This document shows, one piece after another, positions 3,472 through 22,942 of a stretch of 24,001 nt of DNA. Position 1 is the stretch's first letter. The number at the start of each line of letters is the position of its first letter. A program made the translations under genes and the position numbers. The DNA comes from Thermomucor indicae-seudaticae (lineage: Eukaryota; Mucoromycota; Mucoromycetes; Mucorales; Lichtheimiaceae), in assembly GCA_000787465.1 (NCBI GenBank), contig JSYX01000552.1, forward strand, positions 1-24,001, read 5' to 3'. The notes under the pieces are model-generated. The model worked only from the letters and a program-made list of their open reading frames with translations, ran no database searches and had not been told where the DNA came from.

Positions 3472-4650
3472 ATGGTTAAGATTGCGATTGCCGACCCGCC
3501 TGAAATCACAGAACATCATCTTGCAGAAGTCGCCGCCTACATAACCAAAGCAAAGCGAGCTATAGTGGTAACGGGAGCGGGTATATCGTGCAACAGTGGG
3601 ATACCAGTAAGTTCTTGCTATTACAACCTTTCAGCATATAGTTTTCGTAATCGACCAAGTGGATTCCTTTTGAATTAGGACTTTCGTTCAAGCAATGGCC
3701 TGTACAATCTCGTGAAGAAAAAGAATCCGGGCGTAGTCCTGAAAGGAATTGAACTGTTCGACGCCAATCTGTTCAAAGATGAACGAAAAACCAAATCGTT
3801 TTATCATTTTATGGCCGAACTAAAGACCCTTGTTTCTTCGGCAATACCAACGCCTACACACGAATTTTTGCGCCAATTACAAGAAGCGGGACACATTTTG
3901 CGGCTCTATACACAAAATATCGATGATCTGGAGGCATCCATTGACTTGCCAGTCGTGCAGTTGCACGGAACGATGAAGAATGTCAGATGTACGCTTTGTT
4001 CAGCGTCGTACCTCTTTACCAAAGAATACCAGAACACATATCGGAAAGGGCGCGCCCCGATCTGCCCAAATTGTAAGACCATTGGGGACGAGCGAGCCTT
4101 GTTGGGCAAACGTCAGTTGGCTGTAGGCACGCTGCGACCGAACATTGTTTTGTATAATGAAGAGCATCCTGATGCTGAAACGATCGGAGAATTACAAAGT
4201 AGCGATATTAAACGGAAACCAGACCTCTTGATTGTGCTCGGCACGTCGCTCAGAATACCGGCATTAAAACGATTTATCAAGCTCGCCGCAAAGACAATAC
4301 ATGAATCCAGTCAAGGATGCACGATTTTAGTCAACAAGACACCTCCGACCAAGGAATGGGAAAGAGTATTCGACTATTTTATTGAAGGCGATTCAGACGA
4401 GTGGGCAGACAGAATGAAGGAAAAGTTAAAAGACAATGCGTTGATTTCGGCGGCATGGAGGAGGATCCAAGATAGAATAAAGAAGAAAGAAGAGGATGAA
4501 GAAGAAGAGGATGAGGAAGAAGAAAAGGAGAACACGAGGAGAAGGAGGACGCGCAAGATGAATGAGCCTGACGAATGCCATAAATCATTACGACAATTTA
4601 AAGTTATAAAACGGCCAAAGTTGACCCGGTCGCCTGTAAAGGCTAAATAA
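3472..4650 (+). CDS. Sir2-family NAD-dependent protein deacetylase, Hst3/Hst4-like
   Basis: Exons 3472-3606 and 3679-4650 are joined across a 72-bp GTAAGT...TAG intron and give 368 residues. Visible Sir2 motifs are GAGIS (residues 35-39), GIPDFRS across the splice junction, TQNID, the catalytic His in QLHG (about 141), a zinc ribbon with Cys 149/152 and 174/177, GTSL, and a late LVNK strand. The order LFD...FYHFMAELK...PTPTH...LRLYTQNID...LRPNIVLYNE resembles fungal Hst3/Hst4, which deacetylate histone H3 Lys56 after S phase; that subfamily call is inference. The C-terminal tail has a long Glu/Asp run followed by an Arg/Lys cluster, consistent with nuclear localisation. The start is the first ATG after a pyrimidine-rich leader. 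The stop codon overlaps an AATAAA signal. Confidence 0.9.
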
Positions 4651-4651: not shown

Positions 4652-4791
4652 AATCTATCCTAGCTTGCTTACTTATTGCTGCTAATCCTTCATTTGTCGG
4701 ATATGTGTTTTGGCTCTCCGAGTCTGTTGCTCTAGCAGTCTACGAATTATACCCTGATTTTCCATTCGCTTCCGAATATCTGTATATACTC

Positions 4792-6045
4792 ATGGTTCTA
4801 TTTCGCGTTGCACGTCCCACAAAACTCTTGCAGCCTCTTCTCAGCACTCATAGTCGCTACTCCTTTAGCACCAGTCGTCTCTCAATGGCACCAAAGCACC
4901 ATAGAGTGGTCGTCATTGGTTCTGGGCCTGCCGGTAAACATAACATTACAGATTCGACACGAGGGCCGTCGTGCATCAGACTTATTCTTTTGGCCCAAAC
5001 CAGGTCATACGGCGGCCATTTACCTTGCCCGTGCACAGTTGAAGCCGACCATGTTTGAGGGCATGATGGCTAATGGCTTTGCACCCGGAGGCCAGCTCAC
5101 GACCACGACCGATGTCGAGAACTTCCCTGGGTTTCCCGAGGGCATATTGGGTGGCGAGCTCATGGACAGAATGCGAGCTCAATCCGAACGGTGCGGTACT
5201 GTCATTGAAACAGAGACGATCACAAAGCTCGATTGTCAGCAACGGCCGTTCAAACTTTGGCGTGAAGGATCCGAAGAGAATAGTGAGCCTACAGACACCA
5301 GCGATGCCGTCATTCTGGCTACTGGGGCGTCGGCGAAGCGAATGAATTTGCCAGGCGAGGACAAATACTGGCAGAATGGTATTTCTGCTTGCGCTGTATG
5401 TGATGGCGCGGTACCCATCTTTAGAAACAAGCCGTTGGTAGTCGTGGGTGGAGGTGATTCTGCTGCGGAAGAAGCCATTTATCTGACGAAATGCAAGTAA
5501 AAATTCTTGGGATAGCGATTGTCTATATTTACTCTGTACTAATGAATTTATTGTGGATAGATGGTTCGCATATACATGTCTTGGTGCGCCGTGATCGATT
5601 GCGAGCTTCCAAAGTCATGGCAAACCGACTTTTGAAGCATCCCAAGGTGACGGTACATTTTAACACAGTAGCCACCGAAGCTCTGGGTGACGGTAACCTG
5701 CTGACAGGCGTGGCAACCCGTGACACTGTGACGGGAGAGACAGGAAAGATTGAGGCCAGTGGATTATTCTATGCTATCGGTCATGAACCTGCCACGGGAC
5801 TTGTCAAAGGCCAAGTGGATTTGGATGAGAGTGGCTATATTAAGACAGTTCCTGGATCATCTTTGACAAGTGTTCCCGGTCTATTTGCTGCTGGAGATGT
5901 ACAGGATAAACGGTATCGTCAAGCTGTCACCAGTGCTGGCTCAGGATGCATGGCTGCCCTGGACGCTGAACGATACCTGAGCGAATTGGAAGCTGAAATT
6001 GTTGATCAAGGACGCTCCATCAAAGATCAACCAGCCAAAATGTAA
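4792..6045 (+). CDS. TRR1: Thioredoxin reductase (NADPH), low-molecular-weight flavoprotein type
   Basis: The enzyme transfers electrons from NADPH through FAD to thioredoxin. Exons are 4885 (or 4792)-4933, 5004-5492 and 5561-6045. From the ATG at 4885 the protein has 340 residues, the usual size. Motifs, numbered from 4885, are the FAD site GSGPAG (12-17), ATGA, the redox disulfide CAVC (Cys146/Cys149), the NADPH site [10 protein letters not shown], and the C-terminal FAD motif [16 protein letters not shown]. Intron 1 is GT-AG (70 bp). Intron 2 (5493-5560) must use a GC donor, GCAAGT, to keep the frame and restore the conserved YLTKYG; a TACTAAT branch site lies at 5537-5543. An in-frame ATG at 4792 adds 31 residues rich in Arg, Ser and Leu and lacking acidic residues, like a mitochondrial presequence. 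One gene may therefore supply both cytosol and mitochondria. Confidence 0.93.
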
Positions 6046-16784: not shown

Positions 16785-18342
16785 TTAAGCTAGCAAGTGG
16801 ACCAAGTAAAGCACCAACATCATCGTCAAAGCCGTAACGGACGATACAGGAGTCAAAGAAGTCGAGCCGGACGGTTGCTCTGTGGCGTTCACGCCATTGA
16901 CTGTGCCTGGAACACCATTGGCAGCAGCAATCCCAATTCGGTTCTGACCCATGTCGAATACAAGGTAGGTGCTGCGTAGCAAGGAATCGCCCACCAGAAA
17001 CATATTGGAACTAATGCTGCCTGAGTTTCCAAGCGGAGCGATGCCCAACATGCATGCACTTGACGTCTCCGGTGTATCACCATCCAAGGGGATAACGAGC
17101 TCAGAGACTGGAACGCTGAGTACAACTGGGTTGTTTGTGGGCGAGCTAGAAGGAGCCATTTGCAGCTGAAATTGGACAGGTGACTGAGCGGTACTGCAAT
17201 CCACAATCAGAACACCGGTGTCGCGGTCAAGCTGGAAACCAGAGGGACTTGTAATAGCAGCAGCAACCTCGAGAGCAATTTTGTTTGGCATATAAGTCAG
17301 TGTGGTGCCAGTGTCCAAGATAAAGGCGCTCATGGAATCCAAACGGAAATCTTGACTTTCAGAACCATTGGCGACGGCTACGCCTTGACCATAAACCATC
17401 CAGTAATAATAACCGTTTCGACCTGATCCTCCTTGTTGGTGACCTCCAGGCTTGCCGGGCTCCAAAGGATTCTTGGATGTCGTAAGCTGGGCAACAGCAA
17501 GATACTGCAAGTCGCCAGAATATTTTGATTTGTCTATGCCGCCGAGAATGATTTCACCTGCCCAACCTTCCTTGTCTGCTCTGTTCAAGTAAACCGAAAA
17601 GACAGGTTGGTTGATCAGCTTTTGATCGACTAGATTGAATACAAAGGGATTATATGCCGGCTCGCCTTGCGTGGTGGCCGCCGTAAGCTGTGGATATCCT
17701 AAACCAAGAATACCGTTCCCTTGTACAGCCGACTGGTTATACGTCGATGGTGGAGAACTACCGTCGCCTCCGACTGTTGTTGGTGATGTCAGAATTTCTT
17801 CTGTCGTCAGTGCAAGTCCAAACTGTTGATTTGGTACGCTGACGCCTGCCACCGTCACTGTGTCCTTGGCATAGGTGCCATTGACGCTACCAATACCATA
17901 TTGGATCCCAAACTTGTCGTGCAGATCCTGAAAGGTTGAAGACGCTGACTCTTGGAATCCGCCAAACGGACACTCGTTGCGTGGACATTGACTCGAAGGC
18001 ACCCAAAGATCGGAACTAGACGGAGAGACACATCAACATTATCGTTCTCTTCCTCTTTACCCTCTTTGCTTCTTACCTTCCAGTGTCGAACGTCACTGTA
18101 AAGTTCTGGGGTGGCGTACCGATGCCTACTTGCACAAGATATTGTGATCCTTGATCATTATACAACTTTGTTGTATACGCATCTTGACGCTTGTCCAACC
18201 GTAAGTGCTTCAGCCGCGCAGCTGCAAGGATATCTTTGCTGTGAGGATTACGAATCAGAGGAAGTCGTAATAGCGGCGGCTCCTGAATGACAGACGCCGA
18301 AGCAAATACGGCAGTAAAGGTCAAGGCTAACAGGACCACCAT
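16785..18342 (-). CDS. GPI-anchored pepsin-like aspartyl protease (copy 1)
   Basis: A secreted A1-family aspartic endopeptidase. Exons 18342-18077 and 18015-16785 on the - strand give 498 residues. The ATG was chosen because it opens a hydrophobic signal peptide (MVVLLALTFTAVFASA). A propeptide ends at a Kex2-type Lys-Arg in LRLDKRQDA. The catalytic motifs are DTGS (Asp86, split by the 61-bp intron) and DTGT (Asp323); YGIGSVNGTY carries the flap region, and GNGILGLGY is typical. The C-terminus ends in a Ser/Thr-rich stretch and a hydrophobic tail (LTMMLVLYLVHLLA), the pattern of a GPI signal, so it is likely a yapsin-like cell-surface protease. It lies directly downstream of its paralogue at 18856-20549, in the same orientation and with the same intron position in DTGS. 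Confidence 0.92.
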
Positions 18343-18855
18343 TGGTAGAGAGAAACAAAGAAAAAGGCACTCCTCTTCTTTTGTTTGTTTTGGAAGAGGA
18401 AAAGTCAAAGCAAATATATGCCGAGACCTTATTGCCATATTATATTGGTCCGAAACAACACTCTTTTTTTGCTTTCTCACACAGACACACACCCCGGCAA
18501 ACGCCGGTGTTAGTGCCGCTGATAGATAGATAAAGAGGGGTCTCAGTTGCAATCTGTATTGAGACACCAACAACCTTTGCAAGGGCTTATGCCCAAAGAA
18601 GGAAGCCATTCATTGACATTTTACCAACAATGCTCTCACACACAATGAGCCATTGTGCACAGAATACCGTAGATCATTCTTTTTCTGTATAGACGACTCT
18701 CTTTGTTCTCGAGTGATCCATTATTCTTGTTCCGTTTCCGTGTCATGACGAAGATTTTTTCATGGTAAAACAGGGCAAAAATAAGTATATGATGTCATGG
18801 AAAAATGATTGTAATCGTACATTATGAGACTTCTTTTTGTACAATGTAATAATCG
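18343..18855. other. Intergenic between the two protease genes
   Basis: 513 bp holding the promoter of protease copy 1 and the 3' end of copy 2. On the - strand a CCAAT next to an AT-rich TATAATAT-like segment lies near 18435-18453. A CGG-N6-CCG inverted repeat sits at 18495-18506, and a short GATA run at about 18520-18532. Confidence 0.45.
18495..18506. promoter_or_regulatory. CGG-N6-CCG inverted repeat upstream of protease copy 1
   Basis: Facing CGG triplets spaced by six bases, the geometry bound by some Zn2Cys6 factors such as yeast Ppr1. It lies about 155 bases upstream of the protease copy 1 ATG. It may be a chance GC-rich hairpin. Confidence 0.2.
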
Positions 18856-20549
18856 TTACAACAGGTAAGCACAAGCCAGCATCATCATGACTAAGCCAGA
18901 AAGAGAATGACGCACGACAGGAAAGCCCGATGATTGTCCTTCGCCTTCCGAAGGCTTGTTAGCTGACGAATTGGTTACTGTATTATCTTGGCTACTGTTT
19001 GTAACAGGATTGGTCTTCGTCGGCGAATTATTAGATAGCGTAGTAGAGGTAGCGGTGGTATTAGTGGTAGTGGAAGGGAAAGAAGAGGGTGCATGAGAGG
19101 CGACATGGATGGCATTCTTTTGAGGTTTTGCTGCGCTTACCACGTTGGCACCTGCCAAGTTGGCGGGTGCAACACCAACACGGTAGTTTTTCATGTCATA
19201 CACGCTATATACCGAACGCAACGAGGCTTCACCCAAGATCCACGTTTCGCCTGATGTGAGCTGTGTGCTGGAGGAAGAAGTGATGCCAAACATGCAGGAT
19301 TCGGCGGTCTCTGTGTAATCGGTGTCGAGAGGAATGACAAGCTGAGACACGGGCGTGCTGATGACGACTGGGTTAGTCGACGCGCTGCTCGTCGAAATGC
19401 TGAGCTGGAACTCGACGCTGTCGGTGCTTTTGGCGAGGCTACAAGAAACACGATACACGCCATTGAACGCGTCGTAAGAGTAGCTGTCGTTGCCGCCAGC
19501 AACTGCTTCCAAGATGCCGTCTGCATATTGCTTTGGGATCATCGTAAGGGTCGTCCCGGTATCGAGAATGAAGCCCTGTAGAGAAGACAGTGATTTGGAA
19601 TACGACGATCCAGCCTTGATACCTTGACCAGCCACCGTCCAATAGAGAAAAGTGCCTCTGCCGGACTTGCTGCTGGTTCCAACATTAGCCGTAACGTAGA
19701 ATCCAGACGTGTCATAGCTCGCAACAGGGACGTATTGCAGACTGCCAGTGTACTTTGCCGCATCGACACCACCAAACATGATTTCTCCGGTCATGCCGTA
19801 AGCAAAAGGTTTGTTCAGGAAAATGGAAAAGACTGGATCCTGTAACTTGCTGGCCAAATTAAACGCGAACGGTATGTCGTCTTTGGCACCGCGCACTGAA
19901 TTCAGTCCGGGGAACCCAAGGCCCAAGATGCCGTTGGATTGCTCGCCCTCGCTTACAATGCCCAGGATATTCTCTGTCGATGAGACGAGTCCTATCATTT
20001 GGTTCTCCACCTGGGCCGTGCCGACAGTGACGGTCTCTTTGGCATAAGTGCCATTCGCACTACCAATACCATACTCGATAGAGAATGGCATGTTGGTGGT
20101 CTGCAGAGTACTAGACTTGGAAGTATCGAAACGGGAGTATGGACACTTTGATGTTGGACAACTTGTCGACGGAATCCAGAACTCAGCACTAACAATGAAA
20201 CAAAGCTTAATTCCAGCAGAACAAGGTATGGGCCAGAAAGAAAACAGACTGCTCTTTGTTACCTCCCAGTGTCTAGAGTCAGATTAAATCTTTGTGCTGG
20301 AGTACCGACGCCGACTTCGACAAAGTACTCTCTTCCCTGTGCATTATACAGAGAAGCAGTATCGGCACGCTTTTCAATGTCGTTTTCCTGCACCAAAAGC
20401 CGTCGAAGATGCGCCAGCTGGCCGTTCTTGTTTCTCGAAAGTGGAAGTCGGACGATGCCATTGGCTGACAAGACAGCTGCATGTGCAGTTGACGTGCATA
20501 CCGAGGCAAGAGCCAAAACAGCAGCGCAAGAAATGCTGAAAAAATACAT
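18856..20549 (-). CDS. GPI-anchored pepsin-like aspartyl protease (copy 2)
   Basis: An A1-family aspartic protease paralogous to the gene at 16785-18342. Exons 20549-20263 and 20188-18856 on the - strand give 539 residues. The start ATG opens a signal peptide (MYFFSISCAAVLALASVC); a Kex2-type Lys-Arg lies in NDIEKRADT. Catalytic Asp93 is in DTGS, split by the 74-bp intron at the same place as in copy 1, and Asp305 is in LDTGTTLTMIP. After the catalytic domain comes a linker of about 70 residues very rich in Ser, Thr and Asn with several N-glycosylation sequons, then a hydrophobic tail (LSGLVMMMLACAYLL) typical of GPI attachment. The longer mucin-like linker is the main difference from copy 1. 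A TATAAAT-like box near 20740 could be its promoter. Confidence 0.93.
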
Positions 20550-22136: not shown

Positions 22137-22942
22137 ATGTCGACAGGAGGAAATCAGTCAGGTGACGAGGGCGAGTTGGATCTTAAAGAGCAAGATCGCT
22201 ATTTGCCAATTGCAAAGTAACGGAATTCTTGCGTGATCAACTTGTTCGATCTGTCATGTCCCACTCAAGCATTCCCCTTTTTCTTCGGCAGTGTCGCGCG
22301 CATCATGAAGAAATCGCTTCCAGAGAACGCAAAGATAGCAAAAGAAGCCAAGGAATGTGTTCAAGAATGCGTGTCCGAGTTTATTTCTTTCATTACGAGC
22401 GAATATCCTTTTTGTTCACTGAGCTGGACAATGCAACTCTGATCAAACCCCGCGTTTTTTTTCTCGCTAATCCTTAACCGTTTTTTCTTTACAGCTAGCG
22501 ATCGTTGTCAACAGGAAAAGCGAAAGACTATTAACGGCGAAGATATTCTTTGGGCAATGCAATCCTTAGGTTTTGAAAACTATGCAGAGGCCCTAAAGAT
22601 TTATCTTACGAAATATCGAGAGGTAATTCGAGAAAATCGAAAAAAAAAGATGACTGTTGGCTAAAAGCACGCCATATCAAGACCACAAAACTTGAACGAG
22701 CAACTTCAAGCGGAAAAGAGAAGGAAGGAGAATCAAGTACAGCTGCAGTAGCCGAACAGCAACAGCCACTTTATGTCCCGCAACAGCAGCAATCACAAGC
22801 AGCACAACAGCAGCCACAACCAAGTATGCCGAGCAGTTACTACAACGGTAAGTTATTACAAGTCACAGAAGAGAACACTTGTATTGCTAATCTTACCTTG
22901 ACAGCTATTGCGCATCAATATCTTGATCAGAACAAGAGCTAA
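22137..22942 (+). CDS. HAP3: CCAAT-binding factor subunit HAP3/NF-YB, with an AT-AC intron
   Basis: The histone-fold subunit of the HAP (NF-Y) complex, which binds CCAAT boxes with HAP2 and HAP5; in fungi it controls respiration, nitrogen and iron genes. Exons 22137-22216, 22292-22402, 22493-22622, 22682-22847 and 22905-22942 give 174 residues. The core begins at DRYLPIANVARIMKK (residue 20) and runs through [45 protein letters not shown] and [13 protein letters not shown] to YRE (107). The tail is Gln-rich. Intron 2 (22403-22492) starts ATATCCTT, ends in AC and contains TCCTTAAC: a U12-type intron. It restores the invariant TSEASD exactly. Intron 3 (59 bp) was chosen to reach the Gln-rich frame; a 45-bp alternative ends the protein at 22750. 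Confidence 0.95.
22403..22492 (+). other. U12-type AT-AC intron in HAP3
   Basis: This 90-bp intron has the donor ATATCCTTTTT, matching the U12 AT-AC donor consensus, and a TCCTTAAC branch element at 22471-22478 about 15 bases before the terminal AC at 22491-22492. No GT or GC donor in this area gives the conserved protein. The split codon (GA|A, Glu64) is phase 2. Confidence 0.9.

What the first reader, a model, noticed from the sequence alone, without database searches (positions are those of the whole stretch)
22403..22492. AT-AC (U12-type) intron inside the HAP3 histone fold of a fungus
Seen directly: donor ATATCCTT, TCCTTAAC branch element about 15 bases from a terminal AC, and a splice that restores the invariant [14 protein letters not shown]. 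Known: minor-spliceosome introns are absent from most fungi, including the model ascomycetes, but minor-spliceosome parts have been reported in some zygomycetes. Inference: this organism has an active minor spliceosome, and slow U12 splicing could limit CCAAT-factor output.
Basis: partly seen in the sequence, partly recalled or inferred. Interest (0 to 1): 0.85.

Follow-up and report, generated by a model that had tools for sequence, protein, structure and literature searches.

The report
Minor-spliceosome intron in fungal HAP3 gene
A gene for a general transcription factor in a Mucorales-like fungus is interrupted by a rare intron type that needs the second, minor splicing machine, and the rest of this genome shows that the machine is probably present and serves a few dozen genes.

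Summary
Window 22403-22492 is a 90-nt AT-AC intron in HAP3/NF-YB: donor ATATCCTT, branch AATCCTTAAC, last base 15 nt after the second branch A. Of 17 printed junctions with recognised ends, only this one gives [14 protein letters not shown]. The genome holds U11 and U6atac above Rfam cut-offs, a U12 candidate below it, and a U11-25K gene. U4atac was not found. A donor-plus-branch pattern hits 32 sites (reversed control: 3 matches). Of these, 29 have A or G before TATCCTT (28 A, 1 G), and 12 of the 29 have homology across the splice.

Two things go beyond the finding. The U12 candidate reads GUAAGGAUU, and branch sites favour the matching A (16 of 29), as if snRNA and introns changed together. 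And 17 of 280 fetched HAP3/NF-YB proteins, fungal, animal and unnamed, carry SEYP at this exact point, the translation of an unspliced RTATCC donor, so the intron is probably old and often misannotated.

New member of a known kind: minor introns, and the missing U4atac, are in print for Mucorales. Transcripts and any regulatory role are untested.

The parts
22137..22942 (+). HAP3/NF-YB gene, coding exons 22137-22216, 22292-22402, 22493-22622, 22682-22847, 22905-22942 (174 aa)
   Evidence: spliced model, no internal stop; 93-95% identity over the 107-residue query to Circinella, Zychaea, Lichtheimia and Umbelopsis HAP3; ungapped match to PDB HapC 4g91_B
22403..22492 (+). AT-AC U12-type intron, 90 nt, phase 2 in the Glu codon of ITSE|ASDR
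   Evidence: splice enumeration; same position marked by SEYP read-through in 17 of 280 fetched homologues
22403..22410 (+). U12-type 5' splice site ATATCCTT (followed by TTT)
   Evidence: pairs in computed duplexes with the genome's U11 5' end and U6atac
22469..22478 (+). branch-point element AATCCTTAAC
   Evidence: pairs with the genome's U12 candidate GUAAGGAUU, -11.5 kcal/mol; A at -1 in 16 of 29 and at -2 in 13 of 29 sites
22491..22492 (+). terminal AC of the intron; the next exon begins AGCT, so an AG follows directly
   Evidence: that AG is the acceptor of the GT-AG, GC-AG and one AT-AG alternative
22217..22291 (+). ordinary GT-AG intron 1 (75 nt)
22623..22681 (+). ordinary GT-AG intron 3 (59 nt)
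22848..22904 (+). ordinary GT-AG intron 4 (57 nt)
22440..22442 (+). in-frame stop met if the AT-AC intron is retained (protein would end ...[16 protein letters not shown])
   Evidence: reading frame 22221-22442

Best explanation
Window 22403-22492 is a genuine U12-type (minor-spliceosome) AT-AC intron in the histone-fold part of HAP3. U11 pairs with the donor and U12 with the branch site; U6atac then replaces U11 at the donor (order of events recalled); splicing joins GA to AG and restores ITSEASDR. If the intron is retained, translation stops 12 residues after ITSE, inside the histone fold, so a full HAP3 protein needs the minor spliceosome. Shown: the sequence elements, the restoring junction, two minor-class snRNA genes above cut-off and a third below it, one minor-class protein gene in the same genome, and many sister introns. 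Inferred: transcription, actual splicing, and the need for it in the cell.
For: Of 17 printed junctions only AT-AC 22402/22493 gives ITSEASDRC, and the product aligns to solved HapC without a gap. U11 73.1 bits and U6atac 48.2 bits are above cut-off; none of 14 control genomes is above cut-off for either. The U12 candidate scores 32.6 bits, with UAAUGAGUAAGGAUU and a U-rich Sm-like site. A U11-25K gene matches PF18036 over cut-off, and PDB 1v2y_A (4e-10) and 8r7n_B, named U11/U12 25 kDa protein (5.5e-10). TATCCTTN{30,60}TCCTTRAC: 32 distinct sites, reversed control 3 matches. Of 29 sites with A or G first, 12 have homology across the junction: HAP3, ALG6/8, prefoldin (two), MIOS, VPS11, ion channel, DCP2, ChAPs, Alg9-like mannosyltransferase, GPAA1, PPME1. 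U12-branch co-change: A at -1 in 16 of 29, p = 1.4e-4. SEYP read-through at the same point in 17 of 280 relatives.
Against: No transcript data. U4atac was not found by Rfam or by three patterns. CENATAC family PF14968 gave nothing, but that search rang in no control genome either. U12 is below Rfam's gathering score, and 7 of 14 control genomes gave some sub-cut-off U12 match at E <= 10. In-frame GT-AG, GC-AG and AT-AG alternatives exist, and the AT-AG one gives a protein of natural length, ITSESSDRC. Of the 28 other intron peptides, 17 had no homology spanning the junction above cut-off.
Confidence: 0.93

Rival explanations
1. An ordinary GT-AG intron at 22414-22494 is used and HAP3 carries three extra residues (ITSEYPFSSDRC).
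For: It is in frame without a stop. Some deposited relatives carry inserts at this point, such as P0017, P0019 and P0064.
Against: The donor GTTCACTG differs from the gene's other donors GTAACGGA, GTAATTCG, GTAAGTTA. It adds residues, a proline among them, where the two solved relatives shown have none. Inserts in relatives vary in length and all 17 begin with YP, the translated donor. Records of the same species or genus have plain ITSEASDRC: Syncephalis pseudoplumigaleata P0094 against P0121, Gigaspora margarita P0043 against G. rosea P0084, Rhizophagus irregularis P0040 against R. clarus P0110.
Confidence: 0.02
2. The same intron is cut two bases further on at both ends (22405-22494, AT-AG), giving ITSESSDRC.
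For: In frame and of natural length; 7 of 280 fetched relatives read ESS here, P0001 of Circinella umbellata among them, though such records could themselves be gene models with this shift.
Against: The donor ATCCTTTT fits neither class, whereas the full U12 donor ATATCCTT starts two bases upstream. 242 of 280 relatives read EAS followed by D or E.
Confidence: 0.02
3. The AT-AC intron is removed by the major spliceosome, as a few AT-AC introns are in other organisms (recalled).
For: AT-AC ends alone do not prove the class: PMC2846911 lists 'other AT-AC introns' (table seen in passages).
Against: Donor and branch match the full U12 consensus, and the same genome holds U11, U6atac, a U12 candidate and dozens of sites with the same elements.
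Confidence: 0.02
4. A non-functional HAP3 copy or an assembly artefact.
For: Draft assembly of 735 contigs.
Against: Complete five-exon frame and strong conservation; relatives show the same intron position at protein level.
Confidence: 0.01

Closest known systems
U12-type AT-AC introns of Phycomyces blakesleeanus and Rhizopus oryzae (Bartschat and Samuelsson 2010, PMC2846911; passages seen)
   Same: Zygomycetes with U12-type AT-AC and GT-AG introns (RTATCCTT donor, UCCUUAAC branch as printed) and minor snRNAs
   Different: There the Burge method gives 9 AT-AC and 8 GT-AG in Phycomyces, 1 and 2 in Rhizopus; here 28 A and 1 G before TATCCTT, by another method. The paper's main text does not hold CCAAT or NFYB.
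Minor introns of Rhizophagus irregularis and Basidiobolus meristosporus (PMC10639083; passages seen)
   Same: Fungal minor introns, in Rhizophagus a subset at positions shared with other fungi, animals and plants; minor snRNAs and proteins including SNRNP25 in Rhizophagus
   Different: They report 205 and 249 introns, and all four minor snRNAs in Rhizophagus; here 29 candidates by one strict pattern, and no U4atac found.
Minor-spliceosome RNAs of Lichtheimia corymbifera (PMC4133162; passages seen)
   Same: Four of five AT-AC-splicing RNAs found, U4atac not detected, U6atac second half divergent, U12 third stem atrophied; here too U4atac is missing and U12 falls below Rfam's score
   Different: The passages seen report RNA genes, no HAP3 intron and no co-change of U12 with branch sites.

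Membership tests
U12-type (minor) intron | 5' splice site RTATCCTT (rule as printed in PMC2846911) | tested here: met
   ATATCCTT at 22403
U12-type (minor) intron | branch element TCCTTAAC close to the 3' end | tested here: met
   22471-22478, second A 15 nt from the last C
U12-type (minor) intron | AT-AC or GT-AG ends giving the conserved protein | tested here: met
   [18 protein letters not shown] restored
U12-type (minor) intron | removal by the U12-dependent spliceosome in cells | not testable with these tools
   no RNA data
Genome with a minor spliceosome | U11 snRNA | tested here: met
   C206:3366-3535:-, 73.1 bits, cut-off 39
Genome with a minor spliceosome | U12 snRNA | tested here: inconclusive
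   C129:50426-50563:-, 32.6 bits, cut-off 53; motif and co-change support it
Genome with a minor spliceosome | U6atac snRNA | tested here: met
   C101:36459-36599:+, 48.2 bits, cut-off 33
Genome with a minor spliceosome | U4atac snRNA | tested here: not met
   nothing over cut-off (48 of 635 first-look candidates were scored) and no real candidate from three patterns; a diverged or unassembled gene is not excluded
Genome with a minor spliceosome | U11/U12-specific proteins | tested here: met
   U11-25K (SNRNP25) at C180. Only PF18036 and PF14968 were searched; the latter had no match and no working control
HAP3/NF-YB | CBF/NF-YB histone fold | tested here: met
   PF00808 over cut-off in two exons; PDB HapC 2.6e-49

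The most novel reading that the evidence does not exclude
The HAP3/NF-YB AT-AC intron is an ancient opisthokont minor intron. In this Mucorales branch the minor spliceosome has taken its own course: nearly all strict-consensus minor introns begin with AT, U12 and the branch sites have changed together (GUAAGGAUU with AATCCTTAAC), and U4atac is lost, replaced or changed beyond recognition.
Probability: 0.3. Interest if true: 0.7.

Novelty: new member of a known kind. Interest (0 to 1): 0.45.

Why it matters
A core transcription-factor subunit in this fungus appears to depend on the minor spliceosome, at a site that deposited gene models of relatives repeatedly get wrong. The translated donor SEYP is a simple signature for tracing this intron through protein databases without genomes. 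The genome offers a test bed for how U12 snRNA and branch sites change together, and for whether minor splicing can run without a recognisable U4atac, a gap already in print for Lichtheimia and Apophysomyces.

Tried and rejected
U4atac: the two best Rfam hits (L018, L019) score below cut-off and are two copies of one 2-kb duplication, one lacking the 5' stem-loop; the third (L020) is weaker still. The L019 RNA does not pair with U6atac better than shuffles (-23.8 against mean -23.9; 92 of 200 shuffles as low). Pattern one search gave no match. One search gave one match in sequence that does not look like a snRNA (L078, by eye). One search gave three, of which one is U6atac's own reverse strand and two look like coding sequence by eye (no frame test was run). 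The layout of U4atac used to design these patterns is recalled.

The first, looser intron pattern gave 49 matches against 19 for its control, many plainly not introns. It was replaced.

Dropped before the branch-site count: 3 of 32 sites (L069, L081, L084), because the base before TATCCTT was C or T. The animal and plant branch consensus with T at -1 is recalled.

The read-through signature cannot tell ATATCC from GTATCC, since GAA and GAG both read Glu; AT is inferred because gene models would use a GT donor. The protein lists are capped at the best 120 of 5758, 4135 and 5435 hits, and two searches used queries holding the signature, so 17 of 280 is not a frequency. The two Caerostris records lie on contigs of equal length and may be one gene.

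Acceptor ends of the sister introns were chosen by me from open frames. The prefoldin site L060 could also end in AG with one more residue.

CENATAC: no match and no working control, so no conclusion. Phage search with HAP3: none, as expected. The species was not identified; placing Syncephalis, Thamnocephalis, Gigaspora, Caerostris and Elysia in their groups is recalled.

Full report
Observation. The gene at 22137-22942 (+) is HAP3/NF-YB: five exons, 174 residues. Introns 1, 3 and 4 are ordinary GT-AG. Intron 2 (22403-22492) begins ATATCCTT, holds AATCCTTAAC at 22469-22478 and ends TTTAC. One search found 1170 open junctions and printed 17 with recognised ends; AT-AC 22402/22493 alone gives [14 protein letters not shown]. 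Alternatives are GT-AG (ITSEYPFSSDRC), GC-AG (ITTSDRC) and an AT-AG two bases on at both ends (ITSESSDRC, a form that 7 of 280 relatives show). The AT-AC product aligns to HapC without a gap and to 7cvo_B without a gap across the junction. Retention would end the protein 12 residues after ITSE, at a stop at 22440-22442.

Machinery. The genome holds U11 (73.1 bits, cut-off 39), U6atac (48.2, cut-off 33) and a U12 candidate (32.6, cut-off 53). None of the 14 control genomes passed the cut-off for any of them, though some gave weaker matches at E <= 10 (7 for U12, 11 for U6atac, 3 for U11). The weak U12 score fits what is printed for Lichtheimia, where the third stem is atrophied (PMC4133162, passages). 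A U11-25K gene is present: PF18036 37.1 bits on one piece and 60.9 with its neighbour, 75.4 bits when spliced by eye, and PDB 1v2y_A and 8r7n_B (U11/U12 25 kDa protein) at 4e-10 and 5.5e-10. U4atac was not found, as in Lichtheimia; in Apophysomyces neither U4atac nor U12 was reported (PMC4133162, PMC5604411, passages). Computed duplexes of this intron with the genome's own RNAs: U11 5' end with donor -6.7, U6atac with donor -9.8, U12 with branch -11.5 kcal/mol (segments chosen by me, no shuffle control for these three).

Sister introns. TATCCTTN{30,60}TCCTTRACN{6,20}A gives 74 overlapping matches at 32 distinct sites; the reversed pattern gives 3 matches. Three sites have C or T first and were dropped. 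Of 29 left, 28 begin ATATCC and one GTATCC. I spliced them in silico and scanned 28 peptides, HAP3 apart. A Pfam match over cut-off crosses the junction in 10: ALG6/8, prefoldin, MIOS, VPS11, ion channel, DCP2, ChAPs, Alg9-like mannosyltransferase, a second prefoldin (the GT-AG case) and GPAA1. PPME1 spans by PDB. With HAP3 itself that is 12 of 29. A second ion-channel site has one domain that ends before the junction and an EF-hand match (below cut-off) that begins right after it. The other 16 had no spanning match over cut-off. In Phycomyces the printed ratio is 9 AT-AC to 8 GT-AG by the Burge method (PMC2846911, table seen in passages). The skew here rests on one strict pattern and needs a fuller scan.

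Co-change. The U12 candidate reads GUAAGGAUU where the Rfam consensus has GUAAGGAAA. The base before TCCTT in the 29 introns is A in 16, T in 6, C in 4, G in 3. With 22.6% A in the same introns' donor-to-branch interval, the one-sided binomial p is 1.4e-4; for the next base out, 13 of 29, p = 6.6e-3. This matches the two U residues of U12 and supports the sub-cut-off U12 as the working partner.

Age. Among the 120 proteins listed, 8 carry ITSEYP and 2 ITTSDRC at the junction; 109 are plain. After two more searches whose queries held the read-through, 17 of 280 proteins carry SEYP: Apophysomyces, Dichotomocladium (two), Fennellomyces, Circinella minor, Absidia glauca, Gongronella, Gigaspora rosea, Rhizophagus clarus, Syncephalis, Thamnocephalis, the spider Caerostris darwini (two records), the sea slug Elysia marginata, and three unnamed (P0140, P0143, P0147). 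E-Y-P is GAR-TAY-CCN, which fits an unspliced RTATCC donor in phase 2. In 8 of the 11 named fungal cases the insert ends in a residue plus SDRC, as expected if the AG just after the terminal AC is taken as acceptor; P0053, P0084 and P0130 do not. P0140 reads on to ...SLTSIT-ASDRC, which could be a TCCTTAAC branch and an AC end; P0143 and P0147 end ...CLR-ASDKC, which fits an AG end instead. I infer that the same minor intron sits in Mucoromycota, Zoopagomycota and some animals. DNA of these relatives was not available, so position is shown at protein level only.

Literature. Searches of the held PMC library for NFYB with U12-type, NFYB with minor intron, NF-YB with U12 and minor introns with Mucorales gave no paper. 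AT-AC intron with CCAAT gave one review on splicing in tumours (listing only). This shows only that the open-licence text held here does not use those words together. Minor introns or minor-spliceosome RNAs in such fungi are known (PMC2846911, PMC10639083, PMC4133162; passages).

Verdict. The finding is correct and ordinary in kind: a U12-type AT-AC intron in a lineage known to keep them. The added interest lies in the probable age of the intron, the U12-branch co-change, the skew to AT donors and the missing U4atac. Control of CCAAT-factor output by slow splicing is untested.

Noticed in passing
L018 (C618:7819-7939 -) and L019 (C292:33519-33656 +): Two copies of a roughly 2-kb duplication each hold a U4-like RNA with an AATTTTTGG site and an upstream TATAAAAG; one lacks the 5' stem-loop. 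Both score below the cut-offs for U4 and U4atac, so their identity is open.
   Followed up: partly
P0123 and P0135 (metagenome HAP3 proteins): ITSEGN...ASDRC looks like read-through of a GT-AG intron about two bases downstream of the AT-AC site, as if a U12 intron became U2 by a short slide using the AG that follows the terminal AC. A conversion by a short shift of the splice position is in print for nematodes (PMC2846911, passages).
   Followed up: no
L025 and L082: Two AT-donor candidates in ion-channel coding sequence (Ion_trans). The abstract start of PMC6865273 names 'voltage-gated' gene families as rich in minor introns (cut off in the listing).
   Followed up: partly
P0049, P0050 (Rhizopus microsporus): ITTSDRC in these deposited proteins equals the product of the GC-AG splice found in the enumeration for this window, so these gene models are probably wrong.
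   Followed up: partly
window 16788-20283 (-): Reading frames of two neighbouring aspartyl proteases (PF00026); also SIR2 (3679-4647 +) and a pyridine nucleotide-disulphide oxidoreductase in two frames (4736-6042 +) in the window.
   Followed up: no
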